This document shows positions 3,324-36,068 of a DNA stretch of 43,520 nt, piece by piece. This stretch comes from Desulfobacteraceae bacterium 4572_123 (GTDB lineage Bacteria; Desulfobacterota; Desulfobacteria; Desulfobacterales; 4572-123): NCBI GenBank assembly GCA_002084545.1, contig NBLJ01000001.1, forward strand, positions 1-43,520, given 5' to 3'. The notes beneath the pieces were generated by a model. That model saw only the letters and a program-made list of their open reading frames with translations. It was not told the DNA's origin and did not search any database. The position numbers were made by a program, and so were the translations under genes. The number at the start of each line of letters is the position of its first letter. The stretch's first letter is position 1.

Positions 3324-3935
3324 TTATGCGTCGCTTTTCAATATTTTTCCAATCAGGCTTCTTGCTTCCGCATAGGTGCCGGTGACCGTGAGATCCGGAA
3401 AATCGTTTATAACGTTTTCAGGCGGTGAAAAAAGGATGCCGGCGTCGGCTTCCTGAAGCATGCTTACGTCATTGTATGAATCCCCCATGGCAATGATCCG
3501 GTAGTTGAGTTTTTTCAGCCCGATAACGGCATTTCGTTTGGCATCTTGCTGGCGCAGGTTATAGCCCGTGATCATGCCGTCCTGTCCAATTGAGAGGGTA
3601 TGACAAAATAAAGCAGGCCATCCCAGCTTTTTCATCATGGGCCCGGCAAACTGCTCAAACGTATCGGATACAATGATTATCTGGGTATTTTCCCTGAGCC
3701 AGTTTAAAAAATCAAGGGCTCCTTCCAGGGGATCCATGGTTGCGATCACCGACTGGATGTCGTGGATGGTAAGATTGTTTTCTTCCAGGATGGCAAGGCG
3801 CCTTTTCATCAGGACATTATAATCGGATATGTCCCTTGTGGTCAGCCGCAACTCCTCAATGCCGGTTTTTTCGGCAACATTGATCCAAATTTCGGGGATA
3901 AATACACCCTCAAGATCAGAACAGACAATATACAT
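3324..3935 (-). CDS. thrH: ThrH: phosphoserine phosphatase / homoserine phosphotransferase (HAD family)
   Basis: A 203-residue HAD-superfamily protein close in length and wording to Pseudomonas ThrH. HAD motif I is degenerate in the ThrH manner (CSDLEGVFIPE, residues 5-15, with Asp7 and Glu9 as the DxE pair); motif II is IIVSDTFEQF (about 87-96), and motif IV is AMGDSYNDVSML (about 149-160). ThrH hydrolyses phosphoserine and can pass its phosphate to homoserine, replacing homoserine kinase ThrB. The gene directly downstream of hom (77-base gap) argues for that role here. The ATG at 3935 has a CGAGG Shine-Dalgarno. No thrB or thrC is in the window. Confidence 0.88.
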   Translation of the reverse strand: MYIVCSDLEGVFIPEIWINVAEKTGIEELRLTTRDISDYNVLMKRRLAILEENNLTIHDIQSVIATMDPLEGALDFLNWLRENTQIIIVSDTFEQFAGPMMKKLGWPALFCHTLSIGQDGMITGYNLRQQDAKRNAVIGLKKLNYRIIAMGDSYNDVSMLQEADAGILFSPPENVINDFPDLTVTGTYAEARSLIGKILKSDA

Positions 3936-11855: not shown

Positions 11856-13007
11856 ATGAGTAAAAAAAATTTGAAATTTATTCAGGGTAATGAGGTCTGT
11901 GCTGAAGCGGCGATGTATGCCGGGCTTAGTTTTTTTGCAGGCTATCCCATTACGCCTTCAACCGAAATTGCCGAACATCTGGCTAAACGTCTGCCTGAAC
12001 AGGGAGGGCATTTTATTCAGATGGAGGATGAGATATCTTCCATGTGCGCCATTATCGGAGCCTCATTAACAGGAAGCAAGGTGATGACCGCCAGCAGCGG
12101 ACCCGGAATTTCATTAAAGCAGGAGGCTCTTGGATATGCCATTATGACCGAGGTTCCCTGTGTGCTCGTTAATGTTCAGAGGGGAGGCCCTTCCACCGGT
12201 ATTCCGACTCATGGCAGCCAGGGGGATGTGATGCAGGCCCGCTGGGGATGCCACGGAGATCATTCCATCGTAGTTATGACTGCTTCCAATCATCAGGATG
12301 TCTTTGAAATCACGGTGGAAGCTTTTAATATTGCCGAGACTTATCGAACCCCGGTAATTCTTCTGTTTGATGAGATTGTAGGTCATACCCGTGAAAAAGT
12401 GGTGATTCCCGAACCCGGGGAGATTCCACTGGTGGAAAGACTGCGGACATCCGTCAAGGGAGGGGTGGATTACCATCCGTATCTCCCCAGGGAAGACGGC
12501 AGGTTGCCCATGTCGGACTTCGGCAGCGTGCATCGCTATAATGTCACCGGTCTGTTCCATGACATGTGGGGGTTTCCCTCCACCAAACCAGAGCTTGTTT
12601 ACGGCCTGTTGCGTCATCTGACGGATAAAATCGAAAATCGGGTCAACCGGATTGCCCGGTACAAGGAATATTATCTGGAAGATGCGGAACGTATTCTGAT
12701 TTCCTACGGATCTCCAGCCCGTTCGGCCCGCCATGTGGTAGAAAACCGGCGAGCAAGGGGCGAACGCCTGGGGTTGCTGGAACTTCAGACTCTGTGGCCG
12801 TTTCCATCTGAAATTGTGCAGCAAAAGTGCGCAAAGGCCAAGGCCATAGTCGTGGTGGAGATGAACATGGGCCAGATTGTGCAGGAGGTTAAAAAGGCGG
12901 TAACTCAGCCGGAGAGAGTGTTTCTGGCCAACCGGTTTGATGGGGTTTTCATAACTCCCATGGATATTATGAATATCCTGCGGGTGATCAAGGGAAAGGG
13001 AGTTTGA
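11856..13007 (+). CDS. korA: 2-oxoacid:ferredoxin oxidoreductase, alpha subunit
   Basis: A 383-residue subunit binding the pyrimidine side of thiamine diphosphate. It begins MSKKNLKFIQGNEVCAEAA, then FFAGYPITPSTEIAEHL, QMEDEISSMCAIIGASLTGSK-type block, and TASSGPGISLKQEALGYA, all typical of KorA/PorA. NVQRGGPSTGIPTHGSQGD carries the conserved Thr/Ser near the substrate pocket. The frame is open upstream to 11661 but that extension overlaps korD; the ATG at 11856 gives the family N-terminus. It is 76 bases after korD and 3 before korB. Confidence 0.93.
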   Translation: MSKKNLKFIQGNEVCAEAAMYAGLSFFAGYPITPSTEIAEHLAKRLPEQGGHFIQMEDEISSMCAIIGASLTGSKVMTASSGPGISLKQEALGYAIMTEVPCVLVNVQRGGPSTGIPTHGSQGDVMQARWGCHGDHSIVVMTASNHQDVFEITVEAFNIAETYRTPVILLFDEIVGHTREKVVIPEPGEIPLVERLRTSVKGGVDYHPYLPREDGRLPMSDFGSVHRYNVTGLFHDMWGFPSTKPELVYGLLRHLTDKIENRVNRIARYKEYYLEDAERILISYGSPARSARHVVENRRARGERLGLLELQTLWPFPSEIVQQKCAKAKAIVVVEMNMGQIVQEVKKAVTQPERVFLANRFDGVFITPMDIMNILRVIKGKGV

Positions 13008-13010
13008 TAA

Positions 13011-13814
13011 ATGGCGATTAAAGATTATATCAGGGGAAGATTTTTCCCCCATATGTGGTGCCCCGGATGCGGACACGGAATCGTGCTCAACAGCCTGTTG
13101 CGGGCCATTGAAAAATTGGGGATGAGCAAAAACGAGATTGTCATGGTTTCCGGGATCGGATGCAGTGCACGGATTTCCGGGTATGTCGATTTTCACAGCA
13201 TGCACACCCTTCACGGACGGGCACTTGCATTTGCCACGGGTATCAAGATGAGCAGGCCCGAGCTGAATGTGATCGTCCCAATGGGAGACGGCGATGCCCT
13301 GGCTATCGGAGGCAACCATTTTATTCATGCCGCGCGACGCAATATCGACATTACGGCGATTGTGATGAATAACCGCATTTACGGCATGACCGGCGGGCAG
13401 TATTCACCCCTTTCCGGTGTTGGCGTGATGGCCACGACCACACCCTACGGCAACATCGATCATGAATTTGATATCGTTGAAATGGCTCGTGCGGCAGGTG
13501 CTTCCTTTGTAGCCAGGACAACCACCTATCATGCAAAACAGGCCACCGACCTGATCCGGCAGGCTATTATTCATGAGGGATTTTCGGTTGTGGAAATTTT
13601 ATCCCAGTGCCCCACCCAGTTCGGAAGGCGCAACAAAGGAGGCAGTGCAGCCGAAATGATGGAGACTTATAAAACAAATACAACTCCCATCGGATCCAAG
13701 GCCAAAAAAGAGAATCCCGATTTGATTGAACGGGGGATTTTTGTCCAGAAGGATATGCCGGAATATTGCAACGAATATGATAAAATTATTGATCAGGCAA
13801 TGAAAGGGCAATAA
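13011..13814 (+). CDS. korB: 2-oxoacid:ferredoxin oxidoreductase, beta (thiamine diphosphate) subunit
   Basis: The 267-residue catalytic beta subunit binds the thiamine diphosphate pyrophosphate and one [4Fe-4S] cluster. It has MWCPGCGHGIVLNSL (about 16-30, with two cluster cysteines), VSGIGCSARISGYVDF, the thiamine diphosphate motif GDGDALAIGGNHFIHAARRN with the following NNRIYGMTGGQ that supplies metal ligands, and CPTQFGRRNK near the C-terminus. This order and length match KorB. It is nearly end-to-end with korA and korC (3- and 2-base gaps), as expected for equal amounts of the subunits. Confidence 0.94.
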   Translation: MAIKDYIRGRFFPHMWCPGCGHGIVLNSLLRAIEKLGMSKNEIVMVSGIGCSARISGYVDFHSMHTLHGRALAFATGIKMSRPELNVIVPMGDGDALAIGGNHFIHAARRNIDITAIVMNNRIYGMTGGQYSPLSGVGVMATTTPYGNIDHEFDIVEMARAAGASFVARTTTYHAKQATDLIRQAIIHEGFSVVEILSQCPTQFGRRNKGGSAAEMMETYKTNTTPIGSKAKKENPDLIERGIFVQKDMPEYCNEYDKIIDQAMKGQ

Positions 13815-13816
13815 TC

Positions 13817-14362
13817 ATGGAAAGATGCAGAATCGTATTTTCCGGTTCCGGCGGTCAGGGCGTGATTACCGCCGCCATCATAATTGCCGAGGCGGCAGTA
13901 ATGTATGAAGATCTGACGGCCGTGCAGTCCCAGAGCTATGGTGCCGCGGCCCGGGGCGGGTCCACCCGCAGTGATGTTATTATTTCAGATTCGGCCATAC
14001 ATTACCCTAAAGTGGTTCAGCCCAATGTGCTGGTATGTCTTACCCGGGAAGCATATGCCAATTTTTACCCGATCATCCGGCCCGGCGGTCTTCTTCTCAC
14101 TGATAATCGATATGTGAAACAGGAACGGAAGGTGGACGCCAGGCAGATCGGTCTGCCTATGTATCAAACGGTTATGGAAAAGATCGGGAAACCGATTGTT
14201 TTTAATATCTGCATGCTCGGCGCACTGGGTGCACTGACCGAACTTGTCCGCCCCGAATCCATCATGAAAGTACTTGAAACCAGGATTCCGGCGGCCTTTC
14301 TGGATATCAACCGCAAAGCACTGGAACTTGGTCGAAATCTTGCAGAGGATTATTTGAAATAG
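13817..14362 (+). CDS. korC: 2-oxoacid:ferredoxin oxidoreductase, gamma subunit
   Basis: A 181-residue gamma subunit: FSGSGGQGVITAAIIIAEAA at the N-terminus, then QSQSYGAAARGGSTRSDVIIS, both diagnostic of the Pfam POR family that caps the oxidoreductase. With korDAB it completes the complex that oxidises a 2-oxoacid plus CoA to an acyl-CoA and CO2, or works in reverse for CO2 fixation. Last gene of the operon; its stop lies 6 bases from the stop of the convergent larB, with no terminator between. Confidence 0.93.
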   Translation: MERCRIVFSGSGGQGVITAAIIIAEAAVMYEDLTAVQSQSYGAAARGGSTRSDVIISDSAIHYPKVVQPNVLVCLTREAYANFYPIIRPGGLLLTDNRYVKQERKVDARQIGLPMYQTVMEKIGKPIVFNICMLGALGALTELVRPESIMKVLETRIPAAFLDINRKALELGRNLAEDYLK

Positions 14363-29247: not shown

Positions 29248-30441
29248 TCAGCCTTCAAGATATGACTTCAGTTTGCCGAGCCCTTCTTTTATTTCCGATG
29301 TATCAATTCCGGAGTAGGCCAGGCGGATATAAAATTCCGTTTCGCCTTCCAGCGGACGGCCGAAATGGGCCCTGGTGCATACCGAGACGCCGGTTTCGTG
29401 CAGAATCGATTTCCGGATCGATTCATAATCAAGAAGGCCTTTTTTCTGAACTGCTTTTGTCACGTTTGGAAACAGATAAAAAGTGACGTTGGGAGAGAAG
29501 CAGCGGACACCGTCGATACTGTTGATGATCTTGACAGCCGTATCTCTTCGCTCTTTAAGGATATCGAGAATCTTCTTTCTCCCGGCCTGATCACCAGTCA
29601 GCGCCTCGATGGCGGCGTACTGGATGAAGTGATTGGCGCACGACTCATCATTTACGTTCAGCCTGGTGATCACATCGATGACTTCTTTGGGGCCGATGGA
29701 AGCACCAAGCCGCCAGCCGGTCATGGCAAACTGCTTGGAGAAAGTATATAAAATCACGGTGCGATCGGCCATTCCGGGCAGGGATGCAAAAGATCGGCTC
29801 CGGCCTTCATATCGGATATCAAAATAGGCTTCGTCGCAAAGGACATACAGGTCATGTTTTAAAACCAGTCCTGCAAGCGCTTCCATCTCAGTTTGGCTGC
29901 ATTCGGCGCCACTGGGGTTATGAAGATCGTTCAGCACCAGAAAACGGGTTTTGGGCGTAATCATCCGTTTGATTTTTTCGATATCGATTTCAAAGTTGTC
30001 CTTTCCTTCCATGTAGCTGTACGGTAGGCTCTTTCCCCCGTAAAATTCGATCTGGGATTCATAAATGGGGAAGCCCGGATTCGGATAGAGCACCTCATCG
30101 CCGGGGTTCATCAGTGTCATGAAAAATTTACTGATGGTTGGCTTGCCCCCCGGCTGAATGGCAATATTTTCCATGGTGTAATCGATGCCATGGGAAGAAC
30201 TGAGCGTTGAGGCCAGTACCTCGCGCAGTCTTGGAATGCCGGCATTGGGGCAGTATCCGGTTTTTCCGTCACGCATGGCTTTGGCAGCGGCGTCCATAAT
30301 ATTCGAGGGAGTGATGATGTTCAAGTCGCCCAGATGAAACGGGTAGACCTTGTTTCCCTTTGCGGAAAAAGCCGCGGCCTCCGCCGACACCGCAAAGGCG
30401 GTTTCCGTTCCCAGGTGGGAAATACGTTCTGCGATTTTCAT
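29248..30441 (-). CDS. class I/II pyridoxal-phosphate aminotransferase
   Basis: A 397-residue fold-type I aminotransferase (usual length about 380-400). Residues of note: GKTGYCPNAGIPRLREVLA (about 79-97), VLNDLHNPSGAECSQTEMEAL (about 169-190; N and P of HNPSGA contact the cofactor), CDEAYFDIRYEG (about 205-216, Asp-Glu-Ala-Tyr contacts the ring), and the catalytic lysine in TFSKQFAMTGWRLG (about 233-246). A conserved Arg is near the C-terminus (EFYIRLAYSG). It likely works on an aromatic or branched amino acid, but the donor is not predictable. The start at 30441 has a good leader, and the product is cytoplasmic. It is not part of the neighbouring AT-rich unit. Confidence 0.9.
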   Translation of the reverse strand: MKIAERISHLGTETAFAVSAEAAAFSAKGNKVYPFHLGDLNIITPSNIMDAAAKAMRDGKTGYCPNAGIPRLREVLASTLSSSHGIDYTMENIAIQPGGKPTISKFFMTLMNPGDEVLYPNPGFPIYESQIEFYGGKSLPYSYMEGKDNFEIDIEKIKRMITPKTRFLVLNDLHNPSGAECSQTEMEALAGLVLKHDLYVLCDEAYFDIRYEGRSRSFASLPGMADRTVILYTFSKQFAMTGWRLGASIGPKEVIDVITRLNVNDESCANHFIQYAAIEALTGDQAGRKKILDILKERRDTAVKIINSIDGVRCFSPNVTFYLFPNVTKAVQKKGLLDYESIRKSILHETGVSVCTRAHFGRPLEGETEFYIRLAYSGIDTSEIKEGLGKLKSYLEG

Positions 30442-30489
30442 ATTAACTCCTTAATTTATCAGGGTTCGATTTGGGGTAATGGTGTGAAT

Positions 30490-31767
30490 TTAACTATCCA
30501 TAATACAAGAACAAAGTTTTTTGCGGAAATTTTTACAAAGCGGATAAATAAAAATTCCTTTTGTCTGTTTTTTTAACCTATGCGAGGGATAGAGACTGTA
30601 ACCGCTTGTTTTACCGAGTTGAGTCCAATTGGCAGCACGGTAACATGTTCCTTTAAATCGATTGAGCTGGACAAAAGTTTCCAGCAGTACAGGTCTGTAT
30701 TTATATCTATTTTCCCAATCAACCGGCAGTTGTTTTGCAATACCTCCAAGAATTCTGGATGCCAGATTCGGAACCCTAACCCAGGGCAGAATTAAAAATC
30801 GTACATTGTTGACAACATATTTCAAATTTGCGTCGCGTTGTTCCCTTGTCCAGCCAATGAATCTGTCCCGGCCCGCCAAAGACCAGGAGCCTGCTGCAAA
30901 CCCAATAACTGCAACAAGTATTTTCTTTTTTCCCGCATACACCAGATATCTCATCTGTGCGCCAAATAACGTTGATCCGCCAATGTAGTGGTATTGTTCA
31001 ATAAGTTCGCGCCACAGCAGTAAATTTTGGGCTGTGTAAGCAGGAATAAATTTAAGTTCTTTCATCTCTTCCCGGGATAACGTAACGCTTGTCGTATCAA
31101 TTTTCAGGGGTTGTTTCTTTTTTTTATCGGGATTGGTTTTTTTTGTTGATTTTTTTGCAGGTGGTAAAAAAATAAGATTATCCATATCCATTCGTTTTAA
31201 GATATGAGCTACTTGATTTAATTTCAGATTTCCATCTGATTGATAAAAATTGAAAGCCAAACAAACATGTTTTGCAATTCTGTTGCGTGTATACTCAGGA
31301 TTGGATTTTATCAAATTCCTGATCTTTTTAACCTGGTTTGCTGTAAAATAGTGACCAATGTATTTAGCACGGGTACTGTCCCATGTATCAGATCCCTTTT
31401 TACATGGATTTTGCAGAACTTTCAGCAATTTTTCAACACAAGCTTCCCGCTGGGTGGGTTTTCTTCCCGGGGTTTTAAAGTATTGCAATCCTTTTTCAGT
31501 AAAATCCTCCATGGCTTTTATAATGGATGTTGGCGGTACACGCAGATCAAGAACCATTCTTTCAACACTTTTATTATCCAATGCCCCAAGAATAATTTTA
31601 GCTCGTTTTATTCTCCAGATACCCGCAGTTCTGCTGGATGCAATAGTTTTTACCTGTTTAAGAATATTTTCACAACTCAGGATGTCACATATTTTTTTTT
31701 GAGCCCTCTTTTCCTGAATTGTGTCTCTATCAATTGAACAGTTTTCTGGTTCCAGACAGCGTAGCAA
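30490..31767 (-). CDS. DruA-like DUF4338 protein
   Basis: A 425-residue protein whose C-terminal half (about 245-410) is the DUF4338 domain first named from the Druantia anti-phage system: LLWRELIEQYHYIGGSTLFGAQMRYLV, RDRFIGWTREQR, VVNNVRFLILPWVRVPNLASRILG, and GTCYRAANW (RFKGTCYRAANW). The N-terminal half is mixed and Lys-rich, with a run KKSTKKTNPDKKKKQPL before the domain that looks like a basic nucleic-acid-binding linker. It starts at TTG (31765-31767) behind a strong AAGGAGAG, and overlaps the 3' end of the radical SAM gene by 38 bases. Base composition is AT-rich compared with neighbours. No druB-E or druH is present, so defence function is not shown. Confidence 0.8.
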   Translation of the reverse strand: MLRCLEPENCSIDRDTIQEKRAQKKICDILSCENILKQVKTIASSRTAGIWRIKRAKIILGALDNKSVERMVLDLRVPPTSIIKAMEDFTEKGLQYFKTPGRKPTQREACVEKLLKVLQNPCKKGSDTWDSTRAKYIGHYFTANQVKKIRNLIKSNPEYTRNRIAKHVCLAFNFYQSDGNLKLNQVAHILKRMDMDNLIFLPPAKKSTKKTNPDKKKKQPLKIDTTSVTLSREEMKELKFIPAYTAQNLLLWRELIEQYHYIGGSTLFGAQMRYLVYAGKKKILVAVIGFAAGSWSLAGRDRFIGWTREQRDANLKYVVNNVRFLILPWVRVPNLASRILGGIAKQLPVDWENRYKYRPVLLETFVQLNRFKGTCYRAANWTQLGKTSGYSLYPSHRLKKQTKGIFIYPLCKNFRKKLCSCIMDS

Positions 31768-33829
31768 TATACTCTCCTTTTTTATGGCGATGGTTATACC
31801 TGAAAATTGTGTCTACCAGACCTTTATGAATTTTGCGAAATTTCAGTGAATATAACTTGCTGACCCAGTCATAATATTTTTCCATACTTTTCATGTTTTG
31901 AGGAAATAATATTTTTATCAATTCATCAATATGTTTATCCGCATTATTATCAAAAAAATCTTCCAACCGAGGTTGGGGGCCGTTGATCACCGGTTGATAC
32001 TGTTGTACAAACACATATGCGCCTTTCAGTGAACGTAAAAAACGAAATCTCTCGACATCCTGGGCAAGTGTTGTGTTGAACCCGTACATGCAGATGAATT
32101 CAGGATTATCTTTGTAGGTAAAACTGAATTTACGAAAATTTTCCCCAACCTCATCAAGTCTTTTATTGTCATTCAGGCTGAAATGAAAATTTCTTCTTGT
32201 GAATTTTAAGTTTGAACATTGGATACGCTTGAGTATCTCAATTTTTTCCTTATTCACAAGATGAAGATCAAGGGTCTGTGTAAAATTAACTTTGACATCG
32301 CCAGATGCCATTTCCTCCAGAAAATCATCTGCTTTTTCATGTGATAAAATGTTATCATCAAGTAAAATGAGTTTTTTTCTGTTTCCTTGCAGAAGAGCAT
32401 TTAGATCGCTGACCTGGTGTGGTTTGCCCTCTTTTTCAGGAACAAGGCAAAATGCACAGTTAAATGGACAACCACGGGTTATAAATCCCATGGCCCTGTC
32501 CCCCAGGCCAGGATAAAGGTCATAATCAGCAGGCATGTTTTCAATCTCTGCTGAAAGACGTTGTCGGATATTCACACCCGAGCCTCCAAGAGTAAGGGAT
32601 TTACCATAAAATTTTTTTAATTTCATTATGTGATTGGCTGAGCCGGGGCTGTTAAAAATTGAACTGGCAAACACTCTGTCAGCTCCTTTGATACAGCTGT
32701 CTCTGTGTGCCAGAATAACTTTTTTCCCCTTTTCTTTGTAATATCGACTCAGTTTCATAAGAGCAAGGTTCGGCAATTTTCCATCCACATCAATTAGCAG
32801 AATTGATTTTGGAGGTATTTTATTGATTTTTTTCTTTTTTTGGGACGTTAAATTAATTTCGGGAAGTTGCAGATGTTTTTCTATTAATTTATCTGGAAAG
32901 AGTACACGGTTTTTTTCTGAAAGGGTTACAATAAACTGCATCATGGGGAGAAGAGAATCCATGAGACCGATAAAATACCGCAGTTTTTTTCGGCCGGACA
33001 GAATATCAGGACGATGCATTAGAATCAGGCCGGGAGTCTCAAAAAGGTTTCTGCTTGAAGGGAATGCATCAAGCAAATGACGGCAAACATCCATAGCCGT
33101 CATTAGAATGTTTTTTTGCCATTTTTTTAATTTTGACCATTCTGTTTCAATATCGCAATTTCTTACCATCCAGTTTTTGCAGTCAATAGTTAAATGCTCA
33201 TCAGCAAGCCGGCAAATTGTTTTCAGGATATGCAGAGGAAGAAATTTTTTATATTTAAGTCCCTTGTGCCGGAGGATCTTCAAAAACGCCGTGGGATCCG
33301 TGATTCTTGATTTTTTGTTAAAAAGAGAATGGAACCTGTTTACCCGTAAAAAGGGATTATTAAAATCAAAGTCATCCGTGTTGTCATGGGGCGTTAAATC
33401 ATTACCATAGCCTATGAAAAAATAATTATTAAGCCGGCTGCTGCTTTTTATTTTGCGAATATCGATTAGTGTGCTTAAATTATGGCATTCATTGCTTTTT
33501 AGATGTGTTATTGTACCATTTCCAAATATTTGAATACCACTTCCAATCTGGTGAGATGTTGAATTTTCAGTTTCAGCATGGAGTGCCAGAATAAATTCAA
33601 GTTTTAGTTTTTCTTTAGAGTCACGGCAAAATTTTTCCAGAGCACATGGAATATGTGGTAAAAAACGGGAACCGGTTACACACAGGGCTATTAGCTGTAA
33701 AAGTTCTTTCCGGCAAGAATCCGACGGCAGCAGAGTCCATTTTTTAATTGAACCTTTTTTTTCGGGGACAATGAATTTTCCAGTATGGTTTTTTTTGGCA
33801 TTTTTATAATAGAGCTCAAGCAGATACAT
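31730..33829 (-). CDS. fusion of a degenerate P-loop ATPase-like domain with a radical SAM domain
   Basis: A 699-residue protein. Residues about 340-440 form a Rossmann-like, B12-binding-type fold (SILLIDVDGKLPNLALMKLS, with KGKKV and GGSGVN) but lack the B12 DxHxxG motif. The radical SAM CX3CX2C is FITRGCPFNCAFC (Cys about 454, 458, 461), followed by LLDDNIL. Residues 1-325 align in pattern with AAA/ABC-type ATPases of the YbjD/RecF-like group: LLPSDSCRKELLQLIALC stands where Walker A (GxxGxGKST) should be, FFIGYG then SLF...DP, and ETPGLILMHRPD where Walker B (LIDEID) should be, then QFIVTLS where QFIVTTHSP is expected. Both ATP-binding motifs are lost. The gene precedes druA-like and is AT-rich. 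Confidence 0.7.
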   Translation of the reverse strand: MYLLELYYKNAKKNHTGKFIVPEKKGSIKKWTLLPSDSCRKELLQLIALCVTGSRFLPHIPCALEKFCRDSKEKLKLEFILALHAETENSTSHQIGSGIQIFGNGTITHLKSNECHNLSTLIDIRKIKSSSRLNNYFFIGYGNDLTPHDNTDDFDFNNPFLRVNRFHSLFNKKSRITDPTAFLKILRHKGLKYKKFLPLHILKTICRLADEHLTIDCKNWMVRNCDIETEWSKLKKWQKNILMTAMDVCRHLLDAFPSSRNLFETPGLILMHRPDILSGRKKLRYFIGLMDSLLPMMQFIVTLSEKNRVLFPDKLIEKHLQLPEINLTSQKKKKINKIPPKSILLIDVDGKLPNLALMKLSRYYKEKGKKVILAHRDSCIKGADRVFASSIFNSPGSANHIMKLKKFYGKSLTLGGSGVNIRQRLSAEIENMPADYDLYPGLGDRAMGFITRGCPFNCAFCLVPEKEGKPHQVSDLNALLQGNRKKLILLDDNILSHEKADDFLEEMASGDVKVNFTQTLDLHLVNKEKIEILKRIQCSNLKFTRRNFHFSLNDNKRLDEVGENFRKFSFTYKDNPEFICMYGFNTTLAQDVERFRFLRSLKGAYVFVQQYQPVINGPQPRLEDFFDNNADKHIDELIKILFPQNMKSMEKYYDWVSKLYSLKFRKIHKGLVDTIFRYNHRHKKGEYIATLSGTRKLFN

Positions 33830-33895
33830 ATTATACCTATTTGTAATATATGTTCATAGAAAGTAGTTTTAAGAGCGTTTTAAAATTTAAATATT

Positions 33896-33924
33896 TCAAT
33901 ATGTTAAGTTAATATCAATGTCAA
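33896..33924 (-). promoter_or_regulatory. possible promoter for the radical SAM/druA-like unit
   Basis: On the minus strand a perfect TTGACA (33919-33924) and TATTGA (33896-33901) are separated by 17 bases, 67 bases before the start at 33829. The AT-rich 33830-34010 stretch shows no gene. Confidence 0.42.
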
Positions 33925-34010
33925 TACCTATTTTTTATTTTATAAAGAAGATCCTCTGCATCTGCAGGTGGTTATTTGAAAAATAGTTATAAAATAAATG
34001 CCGAAATTGC

Positions 34011-34040
34011 TTGACAGTGAAGCAAACCTGTGAATATACA
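34011..34040 (+). promoter_or_regulatory. possible promoter for the DEAD-box helicase gene
   Basis: TTGACA (34011-34016), 18-base spacer, TATACA (34035-34040). It would give a leader of about 275 bases. Confidence 0.5.
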
Positions 34041-34074
34041 ACATAGCTTTATCTGTTGTGGATTTCGCGTAGAG

Positions 34075-34108
34075 ATGCTGTCCAGATCATTTTGGGCGGC
34101 ATTTTTTT
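34075..34108 (+). terminator. terminator-like hairpin 1 in the helicase leader
   Basis: A 9-bp stem (34075-34083 with 34094-34102, two G-U pairs), 10-nt loop, T7 tract (34102-34108). Its location between the promoter and the coding region suggests transcription attenuation. Confidence 0.55.
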
Positions 34109-34122
34109 ATGGTTTTAAACAG

Positions 34123-34150
34123 CCGGCATGCATGGCATGCGGGTTTTTTT
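34123..34150 (+). terminator. terminator-like hairpin 2 in the helicase leader
   Basis: GCATGC (34126-34131) pairs with GCATGC (34135-34140) around a 3-nt loop, with CC/GG beyond a G-G mismatch, followed by T7 (34144-34150). Confidence 0.5.
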
Positions 34151-34207
34151 ATAAGAAAAAGCAGTTGTTGTCCGGTGAGATCGTGCATTATCTATGCGAC
34201 TGGTTGA

Positions 34208-34241
34208 TCAAAAGCAGCAATGGAACAGTTGCTGCTTTTGA
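34208..34241 (+). promoter_or_regulatory. perfect 13-bp hairpin in the helicase leader
   Basis: TCAAAAGCAGCAA (34208-34220) and TTGCTGCTTTTGA (34229-34241), 8-nt loop, no T run. It lies about 80 bases before the ATG; a candidate site of helicase feedback on its own message. Confidence 0.65.
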
Positions 34242-34322
34242 CGGACCTCGGACGTAAACAACGTGCCGACATGGTGCATGCGATTCTCGTGTGTATCCCA
34301 TGATCGGCAATGACTGGAGATT

Positions 34323-36068
34323 ATGGAATTTCAAGAATTAGGATTGAATGAACAACTGTCGCAGGCGGTGACGGAACTGGGTTTTGTGACCCCCATGCCC
34401 ATACAGGAAAAGGCCATCCCCGTGCTGCTGGAAGACCGGCAGGATGTGGTTGGACTGGCCCAGACCGGTACCGGAAAAACAGGGGCCTTTGGTTTGCCGC
34501 TGCTGCAGCGTATCGACGAATCGATCCGCCGCCCCCAGGCCCTTGTTCTGTGCCCCACCCGTGAACTTTGCATACAGATCACCAGGGATATAAAGCGGTA
34601 TTCACGCCACATGGCGGGCGTTCATACAGTAGCTGTGTACGGCGGTGCCGGCATCGTTACCCAGATGCAGCAGATAAAACGCGGTGCCCACATTATTGTG
34701 GCGACGCCGGGACGGCTCATTGATCTGCTCCATCGAAAAGTGGTGAAGATGGCCCAGGTATCCGTGGCGGTTTTGGATGAAGCCGATGAGATGCTGAACA
34801 TGGGATTTAAGGAAGAGATCGACAAGATCCTGGATACCCTGCCCGCACAGCGCAGGATCTGGCTGTTTTCCGCTACCATGCCCTCGGGTGTCGCTTTCAT
34901 TGCTAAAAAATATCTTGCGGACCCGGTGAATATCACCGTGATGGGGAAAAACCGAACCCCCAAGAACATCGCACACACCTGCTACACCCTGCGGGAAAAA
35001 GATCGGTATGAGGCGTTGAAACGGGTACTTGATTTCTCTCCGGGTATTTTCGGGCTGGTATTCTGCCGAACCCGGAAATTGACCCAGGAAGTCGCGGCCA
35101 GCCTGATGAAAGATGGCTATGACGCGGATGCCCTTCATGGCGATTTGTCCCAGTCCCAGCGGGATTATGTCATGGGAAAATTCCGGAGTGCATCGGTTCG
35201 TATTCTGGTGGCCACCGATGTAGCGGCCCGGGGACTGGATGTGGATGATATCACCCATGTGATTCATTACAATCTGCCCGACGAGACGGAAGTGTATACC
35301 CACCGCAGCGGGCGGACGGCCCGAGCCGGAAAATGCGGCGCATCCATTGTGCTGATCAATATGAAAGAAAAATATCGGGTTCAGCTCATTGAAAAGCGGT
35401 GCAAAATCAAGTTTGATTTTGGAAAAATCCCTGCAGGAAAGGAAATTTGCAAAAAGCAGCTTCTCAGTCACATCGAAAAAATTGTGGATGCAAAGGTCAA
35501 CGACGATGACTTCGCCGATTACCTGCCCGACGTATACGAGGCGTTGAGGGGAATAGACAAAGAGGAACTGATCAAACGATTCGTGTCTTCCGAATTTACC
35601 CGTTTCATCGAGAATTACCGCCATGCCGGTGATATCAACGTGAAAACCGAAAAAGCGGCGGGTGCCTGGACCGGAGACAAATCCGGGGCAAAGAAGGGTG
35701 CCAATGGCGGGATTGCAAAACAAAAGCCCAGCATCAGAAACCGTATGAAGGGCAAGAAAACCCAGCGTTTTTTTATCAACGTCGGCCGGCTGGATAAAAT
35801 CAATCCGGGCGCCATCATACGGCTTGTCTGTGACGGCTCGGGAATTCGGTCAAACATGATAGGCCAGATCGATTTAAAACGGGAATTTTCATTTTTCGAG
35901 GTAGAACAGCAGGCGGCCGGCAGGGTGCGCCAGTTTGTAAAAAACGCCAGGCTCGACGGCAGGGCCGTCAAGGTCCGGGAGGTCGTTAAAAAAAACATCG
36001 GCGGAAAAACCATGGGAAACCATTCCAGACAAAATAAACGCAGTCATCACCACGCTGCCGTCATGTGA
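34323..36068 (+). CDS. DEAD-box ATP-dependent RNA helicase with DbpA-type RNA-binding domain
   Basis: A 581-residue helicase. Motifs in order: Q (VTPMPIQEKA, about 21-30), I AQTGTGKTGAF, Ia PTRELCIQI, Ib TPGRLIDLL, II VLDEADEML, III SATMPSG, V ATDVAARGLDV, VI HRSGRTARAGK. After about 465 comes a basic linker (KSGAKKGANGG, RMKGKKTQRFF) and the DbpA RNA-binding domain (INVGRLDKINPGAIIRLVCDGSGI), which binds structured RNA. It could be DeaD/CsdA-like or DbpA-like, with roles in ribosome assembly and cold-shock RNA unfolding. The long structured leader upstream agrees with cold- or self-regulation. The downstream hairpin at 36084-36104 lacks a T run. GGAG before the ATG. Confidence 0.93.
   Translation: MEFQELGLNEQLSQAVTELGFVTPMPIQEKAIPVLLEDRQDVVGLAQTGTGKTGAFGLPLLQRIDESIRRPQALVLCPTRELCIQITRDIKRYSRHMAGVHTVAVYGGAGIVTQMQQIKRGAHIIVATPGRLIDLLHRKVVKMAQVSVAVLDEADEMLNMGFKEEIDKILDTLPAQRRIWLFSATMPSGVAFIAKKYLADPVNITVMGKNRTPKNIAHTCYTLREKDRYEALKRVLDFSPGIFGLVFCRTRKLTQEVAASLMKDGYDADALHGDLSQSQRDYVMGKFRSASVRILVATDVAARGLDVDDITHVIHYNLPDETEVYTHRSGRTARAGKCGASIVLINMKEKYRVQLIEKRCKIKFDFGKIPAGKEICKKQLLSHIEKIVDAKVNDDDFADYLPDVYEALRGIDKEELIKRFVSSEFTRFIENYRHAGDINVKTEKAAGAWTGDKSGAKKGANGGIAKQKPSIRNRMKGKKTQRFFINVGRLDKINPGAIIRLVCDGSGIRSNMIGQIDLKREFSFFEVEQQAAGRVRQFVKNARLDGRAVKVREVVKKNIGGKTMGNHSRQNKRSHHHAAVM

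What the first reader, a model, noticed from the sequence alone, without database searches (positions are those of the whole stretch)
30490..33829. Two-gene unit: dead P-loop ATPase-radical SAM fusion plus a DruA-like protein
The 699-residue protein keeps the framework of an AAA/ABC-type ATPase N-terminally, but Walker A reads LPSDSCRKEL and Walker B reads LILMHRPD, so it cannot hydrolyse ATP in the normal way. It is fused to a radical SAM domain with a good CX3CX2C. The next gene overlaps it by 38 bases, starts at TTG with a strong Shine-Dalgarno, and has the DUF4338 domain of DruA. The region is AT-rich against its neighbours. DruA is part of the Druantia defence system, so a nucleic-acid- or nucleotide-modifying defence or mobile-element function is worth testing. 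The link is inference.
Basis: partly seen in the sequence, partly recalled or inferred. Interest (0 to 1): 0.75.

Follow-up and report, generated by a model that had tools for sequence, protein, structure and literature searches.

The report
Dead-ATPase radical SAM fusion with DruA-domain partner
In the window and in about 65 other bacterial genomes from roughly ten phyla, one protein joins a defunct copy of a known antiviral ATPase (PtuA of Septu and retrons) to an apparently intact radical-chemistry enzyme, often next to a special acetyltransferase-fold gene; this is a real, apparently undescribed gene family whose most likely job is chemically modifying RNA or DNA in conflicts with phages or other mobile DNA, which remains untested.

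Summary
Window 31730-33829(-) encodes 699 aa: an N-terminal ATPase-fold domain without Walker A, catalytic Glu, signature or H-loop, fused to a radical SAM domain with CX3CX2C. Window 30490-31767(-) overlaps it by 38 nt and carries the DUF4338/DruA domain.

The N-domain is specifically PtuA-like (Septu, retron I-A): only PtuA chains match its profile significantly in the PDB (E 4e-11 to 2e-8), and the AlphaFold model (pLDDT 91) matches PtuA, while its radical SAM half matches MiaB/MtaB. All 60 relatives with that stretch lack a P-loop motif, yet the domain is under purifying selection (dN/dS 0.15-0.43): an old pseudo-ATPase. The three cluster cysteines are invariant in 65/65.

The pair is real: 11 of 390 genomes of the class carry the long partner DruA; all 11 carry the fusion beside it (Fisher p 1e-16). 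But the fusion is often without it (20 of 65 loci have it or remnants).

The step "DruA means Druantia/defence" fails: DUF4338 is a GNAT fold, mostly an IS66 accessory in this class, with no DruE nearby.

Best reading: a horizontally moving radical SAM enzyme aimed at nucleic acid, probably RNA, by a dead PtuA scaffold; a conflict role is likely but unproven.

The parts
31730..33829 (-). Pseudo-ATPase/radical SAM fusion protein, 699 aa
   Evidence: 64 further relatives aligned in A3
32855..33829 (-). N-terminal domain, residues 1-325: PtuA-like ATPase fold without Walker A, catalytic Glu, signature motif or H-loop
33695..33739 (-). Degenerate P-loop region, residues 31-45 (WTLLPSDSCRKELLQ)
   Evidence: no GK[ST] in any of 60 relatives; two-residue loop in the model
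32897..33034 (-). Remnant of Walker B and H-loop, residues 266-311 (GLILMHRPD...FIVTLSEKN region); upstream D247/R250 and P295/Q298 invariant
   Evidence: PtuA LIDEID/TTHS reads LLDRPD/TLSE in the family
31733..32806 (-). Radical SAM half, residues 342-699: Rossmann-like lead domain, radical SAM core, family-specific C-terminus
   Evidence: PHROG 9298 E 3e-52; Foldseek MtaB/MiaB
32447..32470 (-). CX3CX2C iron-sulphur motif, residues 454-461 (CPFNCAFC)
   Evidence: invariant in 65/65
30490..31767 (-). Partner: 425-aa DruA-domain protein, helical HTH-like N-terminus (about 1-200) plus GNAT-fold C-terminus (about 230-412), TTG start
   Evidence: PF14236 E 2e-42; AlphaFold pLDDT 83; Foldseek GNATs
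31730..31767 (-). 38-nt overlap of the two genes, suggests translational coupling
   Evidence: coordinates; most partners lie downstream within about 0-90 nt or overlap in other loci

Best explanation
The core is a fused enzyme in which a PtuA-derived domain has lost ATP hydrolysis and serves as a fixed scaffold (dimerisation and/or nucleic-acid recognition), placing a working radical SAM domain on a nucleic-acid substrate, most likely a structured RNA such as a tRNA. The radical SAM domain would modify that RNA, either to disable it during phage or plasmid attack or to protect it from an invader's or host's nuclease. The HTH-GNAT partner is an optional accessory, probably recruited from insertion-sequence passenger genes, acting as a regulator or second modifying protein. 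Shown here: both domains, loss of ATPase motifs, retention of the radical SAM cluster motif, purifying selection, specific linkage with the partner, patchy spread across phyla. Inferred: RNA as substrate, the scaffold role, the conflict role and the partner's role and origin.
For: N-domain matches only PtuA significantly by profile and PtuA of Septu and retrons Eco7/Ec78/Ec83 by fold; PtuAB systems act on tRNA-Tyr or DNA (PMC11555353; PMC13096335 abstract). Radical SAM half is nearest in fold to MtaB/MiaB, including MiaB-RNA complexes. Cluster cysteines invariant in 65/65, P-loop lost in all that cover it. dN/dS of N-domain 0.15-0.43 and of radical SAM half 0.12-0.25 in 13 pairs. Spread over about ten phyla with mixing of several of them in the tree; unit sharply bounded at gene edges between several relatives and present twice in a few genomes. 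Long partner exclusive to fusion-bearing genomes in the survey, p 1e-16. Three relatives carry an ASCH-domain (RNA-binding-type) gene between partner and fusion.
Against: No biochemical or phage data exist. Fold similarity to MiaB is shared by many radical SAM enzymes and does not fix the substrate; TRAM and UPF0004 domains are absent. Neighbours show no clear defence-island enrichment: 149 families over 123 neighbours, none above 4; only single or double AbiEii, type IV REase and similar hits. PtuB HNH, reverse transcriptase and retron RNA were not seen. PtuA of E. coli Septu was reported to act on DNA, so RNA is not certain.
Confidence: 0.42

Rival explanations
1. Small selfish mobile unit: the fusion (with or without partner) spreads as a tightly bounded one- or two-gene cargo, and the DUF4338 gene is a mobility accessory as in IS66; host benefit is not needed.
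For: Homology between relatives starts about 6-60 nt before the ATG and ends about 0-36 nt after the stop in several pairs with unrelated flanks; two divergent copies in one genome (L064/L075, 94.5% identical; L020/L023, 83%); DUF4338 is an IS accessory elsewhere.
Against: No transposase, terminal inverted repeat or target-site duplication at the boundaries; nearly always one copy per genome; the partner is missing from most loci; strong constraint on the cluster cysteines; some other pairs share longer flanks (L031/L033, L035/L039).
Confidence: 0.2
2. Accessory metabolic or RNA-modification enzyme unrelated to conflict, e.g. a niche tRNA or protein modification of anaerobes, spread by horizontal transfer.
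For: Many carriers are anaerobes or sediment bacteria (titles); random chromosomal contexts, no recurrent defence neighbours; radical SAM-only homologues occur alone in many bacteria.
Against: PtuA-type domains are known from antiphage systems; patchy presence (about 19 of 390 genomes) and gene decay in some carriers (L069, L080).
Confidence: 0.23
3. Antiviral nucleotide-modifying radical SAM enzyme of the viperin type, making chain-terminating nucleotides.
Against: No viperin family among PADLOC, NCBIfam or Pfam hits; top folds are MiaB/MtaB and B12-type enzymes, no viperin among the 50 listed.
Confidence: 0.05
4. A variant of Druantia defence.
For: Partner has the DruA domain.
Against: No DruE-type helicase recurs beside the fusion; the genome's only MZB helicase is on another contig; DUF4338 is shared with IS elements; PADLOC DruA1 match is weak, E 2e-7 over 55 residues.
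Confidence: 0.02

Closest known systems
PtuA of Septu and of type I-A retrons (Eco7/Ec78, Ec83)
   Same: Fold and sequence of the ATPase C-terminal part, including the D-x-x-R helix and PNxQF motif
   Different: Family here has no Walker A, catalytic Glu, signature or H-loop; effector is a fused radical SAM domain instead of the separate HNH protein PtuB; no RT or retron RNA
PHROG 9298 radical SAM proteins of phages
   Same: Radical SAM half, residues 342-620, E 3e-52
   Different: Phage proteins are mostly about 290-350 aa, lack the PtuA-like domain, match only to about residue 611-620, and form a separate clade
MiaB/MtaB tRNA methylthiotransferases
   Same: Overall fold of Rossmann-like lead domain plus radical SAM core
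   Different: No UPF0004 or TRAM domain match, 13-14% identity; substrate unknown
DUF4338 (DruA-domain) GNAT proteins
   Same: GNAT-fold C-terminal domain of the partner
   Different: Partner has its own helical N-terminus, matched full length only in fusion genomes; most others are ~300-aa accessories of IS66 or other IS elements, or DruA of Druantia

Membership tests
PtuA ATPase family (Septu/retron I-A) | Homologous ABC/AAA_15-type ATPase fold | tested here: met
   Profile E 4e-11 to PtuA only; Foldseek E 1e-8, prob 1.00
PtuA ATPase family (Septu/retron I-A) | Walker A/B, signature, H-loop for ATP hydrolysis | tested here: not met
   0 of 60 with GK[ST]; Glu position mostly R/Q/G/L; H-loop position mostly S/P/D
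Septu defence system | Adjacent HNH nuclease PtuB | tested here: not met
   No recurrent HNH neighbour; only DruA and ASCH recur as partners
Type I-A retron | Reverse transcriptase and msr-msd RNA | tested here: not met
   No Rfam match at 30000-34800; no RT among recurrent neighbours
Radical SAM superfamily | CX3CX2C cluster motif in a radical SAM core | tested here: met
   Invariant 65/65; PF04055 E 4.5e-4, below Pfam cut-off; fold match
Radical SAM superfamily | Reductive cleavage of SAM | not testable with these tools
   Needs biochemistry
MiaB/RimO/MtaB methylthiotransferases | UPF0004 and TRAM domains with the second cluster | tested here: not met
   No Pfam match
Druantia | DruE (DUF1998/MZB helicase) in the same cluster | tested here: not met
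   Only one MZB helicase in the genome, contig C4; window is C143
GNAT fold / DUF4338 | GNAT fold | tested here: met
   Foldseek best 5cnp E 5e-5; the 50 listed are GNATs or GNAT-related acyl synthases
GNAT fold / DUF4338 | Q/R-x-x-G-x-G/A acyl-CoA motif | tested here: inconclusive
   Position reads R-V-P-N-L-A in the window; L335 A336 S337 invariant, first Gly replaced
Viperin | Viperin family match | tested here: not met
   None in PADLOC, NCBIfam or Pfam scans

The most novel reading that the evidence does not exclude
A new type of antiphage or anti-plasmid system in which a catalytically dead PtuA delivers radical SAM chemistry, rather than a nuclease, to a tRNA or other nucleic acid, with a GNAT-fold partner that adds or senses a second modification.
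Probability: 0.25. Interest if true: 0.88.

Novelty: new variant of a known kind. Interest (0 to 1): 0.62.

Why it matters
If right, it shows a defence ATPase retired into a pure scaffold and rearmed with radical chemistry, a kind of effector hardly known in prokaryotic immunity, and gives a clean test of whether PtuA domains recognise nucleic acid without ATP. Practically, it corrects an annotation trap: proteins named 'Druantia protein DruA' are, in this class, mostly insertion-sequence accessories.

Tried and rejected
RecF/YbjD-type ATPase: no such hit; PtuA instead. Phage-borne fusion: none in viral contigs, 50,697 phages or 72,556 plasmids, only the radical SAM half. Partner DruA in viral contigs: none. 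Split ancestor with a live ATPase beside radical SAM-only homologues (L086, L089-L098): none seen; the live TIR-AAA_15 gene in L088 is a separate gene. Integration at tRNA genes: only one locus (L061) has a tRNA near the fusion. Integron cassette idea for L025/L029: the 71-bp repeats lack attC structure. Transposon ends: no inverted repeats or target duplications. Rfam RNA in the unit: none. Conserved ncRNA in flanks: flanks are unrelated between most relatives. Paper searches for radical SAM with retron, PtuA or antiphage ATPase found no description of this fusion in the titles and abstracts returned; only open-licence PMC papers were searched.

Full report
CHECK. Both genes exist as described. 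The 699-aa protein (31730-33829, minus) is overlapped by 38 nt by a 425-aa TTG-started gene (30490-31767, minus) preceded by AAAGGAGAG. GC is 0.34-0.38 over the unit and about 0.48-0.52 around it. Flanking genes are ordinary: TauE transporter, aminotransferase, DbpA-type DEAD-box helicase, OmpA-family protein, aldo/keto reductase. The window is contig 143 of a 168-contig, 88% complete, 7.5% contaminated genome assembly.

WHAT THE N-DOMAIN IS. PADLOC gave weak PtuA matches (E 6.6e-5). A 33-sequence profile of the domain hits only PtuA chains significantly in the whole PDB, E 4e-11 to 2e-8, mainly over profile positions 228-309. The AlphaFold model of the full protein (65 sequences, pLDDT 90.6, pTM 0.84) matches PtuA of Septu (8eea) and of retrons Eco7, Ec78 and Ec83 at E about 1e-8 to 1e-6. 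So it is PtuA-like, and it is dead: none of 60 relatives covering the stretch has GK[ST] in the first 80 residues; PtuA's 'LIDEID' reads 'LLDRPD' and its 'TTHS' reads 'TLSE'; the 'LSxGxK' signature reads 'LxxWQK'. In the model the P-loop is cut to two residues. The domain is not drifting: in 13 close pairs dN/dS is 0.15-0.43, against 0.12-0.25 for the radical SAM half, and D247, R250, P295 and Q298 are invariant in 65 sequences. It is a maintained pseudo-ATPase.

WHAT THE C-HALF IS. Residues 342-620 match PHROG 9298, a phage radical SAM family, E 3e-52; the CX3CX2C cysteines and several other residues are invariant. Fold neighbours are MtaB and MiaB, tRNA methylthiotransferases. Phage members lack the PtuA-like domain and form their own clade; bacterial radical SAM-only relatives (L086, L089-L098) group with the fusions on the other side. 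Two fusion types exist: the common one, which includes the window, and a divergent one (L082, L085, L087, L088), whose N-domain is also degenerate.

DISTRIBUTION. One scan of GTDB contigs found the fusion in Desulfobacterota and other 'Deltaproteobacteria', Verrucomicrobiota, Pseudomonadota, Spirochaetota, Elusimicrobiota, Chloroflexota, Acidobacteriota, Fermentibacteria, Riflebacteria and Aminicenantes. On the tree the phylum labels need 16 changes where 8 is the minimum, with Thermodesulfobacteriota needing 10: horizontal transfer on top of some vertical signal, with the caveat that most records are metagenome bins. The fusion was not found in the viral, phage and plasmid collections.

THE PARTNER. 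In a survey of 390 genomes of the class, the long form of the partner (at least 270 bits) occurs in 11 genomes; all 11 have the fusion, on the same contig and adjacent (Fisher p 1.1e-16). The partner model was built from fusion-linked sequences, which favours them, but other DUF4338 proteins match only its GNAT domain (best about 224 bits). Across the wider set 20 of 65 fusion loci carry the partner or a remnant, always on the same strand and neighbouring (some contigs end too soon to tell); three of these have the order DruA-ASCH-fusion. Presence needs 11 changes on the tree, so the partner is often gained or lost. No other neighbour recurs at comparable rate or place.

WHAT DruA MEANS HERE. 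The partner's C-terminal domain has a GNAT fold (AlphaFold pLDDT 83; Foldseek best SpeG, E 5e-5). PMC10853773 already calls DUF4338 a GNAT domain. DUF4338 matches occur in 131 of 390 genomes; of 19 inspected non-partner loci 13 sit beside an IS66 transposase, others are fused to Tn5/IS4-type transposases or lie beside a DDE transposase, and copies compared within two genomes are 99-100% identical over about 2.4 kb. Hence DUF4338 does not imply Druantia, and no DruE is nearby.

MECHANISM. Shown: dead scaffold domain, intact radical SAM motif, constraint, specific but optional partner, mobility at the scale of the unit. Inferred from family knowledge: PtuAB of retron Eco7 depletes tRNA-Tyr, while E. 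coli Septu PtuAB was reported to act on nicked DNA (PMC11555353), and a 2026 abstract reports cleavage of the tRNA-Tyr variable loop by Septu (PMC13096335). A dead PtuA carrying a MiaB-like enzyme therefore most plausibly marks or spoils a nucleic acid, RNA first. I give this about 0.42, with an accessory non-conflict modification enzyme (0.23) and a selfish unit (0.20) as serious rivals. The scan of 123 neighbours gave no clear defence-island signal, which is why I do not go higher.

VERDICT. A real, conserved and, as far as the papers searched go, undescribed fusion family; new variant of a known kind (PtuA-type conflict proteins).

Noticed in passing
L208-L220, L227-L236 (genomes of the window's class): DUF4338/DruA-domain proteins of about 300 aa are accessories of IS66 elements (13 of 19 loci), or lie beside ISAs1-like or are fused to Tn5/IS4-type transposases, with near-identical copies in some genomes; database names 'Druantia protein DruA' mislead.
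   Followed up: yes
L021/L022/L024, L038/L081, L064/L075, L020/L023: Homology between related fusion loci is cut off near the gene edges (about 6-60 nt before ATG, mostly 0-36 nt after stop) with unrelated flanks and no terminal repeats or target duplications; how the unit moves is unexplained.
   Followed up: partly
L088:10408-12066 and 12908-13918: Near an Aminicenantes fusion lies a TIR plus AAA_15 ATPase with intact Walker motifs and a second gene related to it: a candidate TIR defence locus.
   Followed up: no
L025:4501-4896, L029:1630-2025, L078:4646-5053: ASCH-domain protein (131-135 aa) between partner DruA and fusion, only in loci where DruA lies upstream.
   Followed up: partly
L025:847-990, 2078-2221, 3439-3509; L029:4348-4420: Dispersed repeat of about 71-144 bp between genes, shared by a Desulfobacteria and a Chloroflexi bin whose fusions are nearly identical; may be transfer or mis-binning.
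   Followed up: partly
L099-L178 (viral contigs): Phage PHROG 9298-type radical SAM genes lie within 1.5 kb of a DNA cytosine methyltransferase-like gene in 11 of 79 contigs and of a PAPS-reductase-like gene in 6 (families judged by eye): possible phage nucleic-acid modification clusters.
   Followed up: no
plasmid record LC711081.1, 23219-24994: Archaeal relative of the radical SAM half annotated with an intein/homing domain.
   Followed up: no
L020 and L023 (one Desulfosarcina bin): Two fusions 83% identical in DNA, but their adjacent DruA N-termini are only 45% identical in protein, suggesting the partner is exchanged independently or evolves faster.
   Followed up: no
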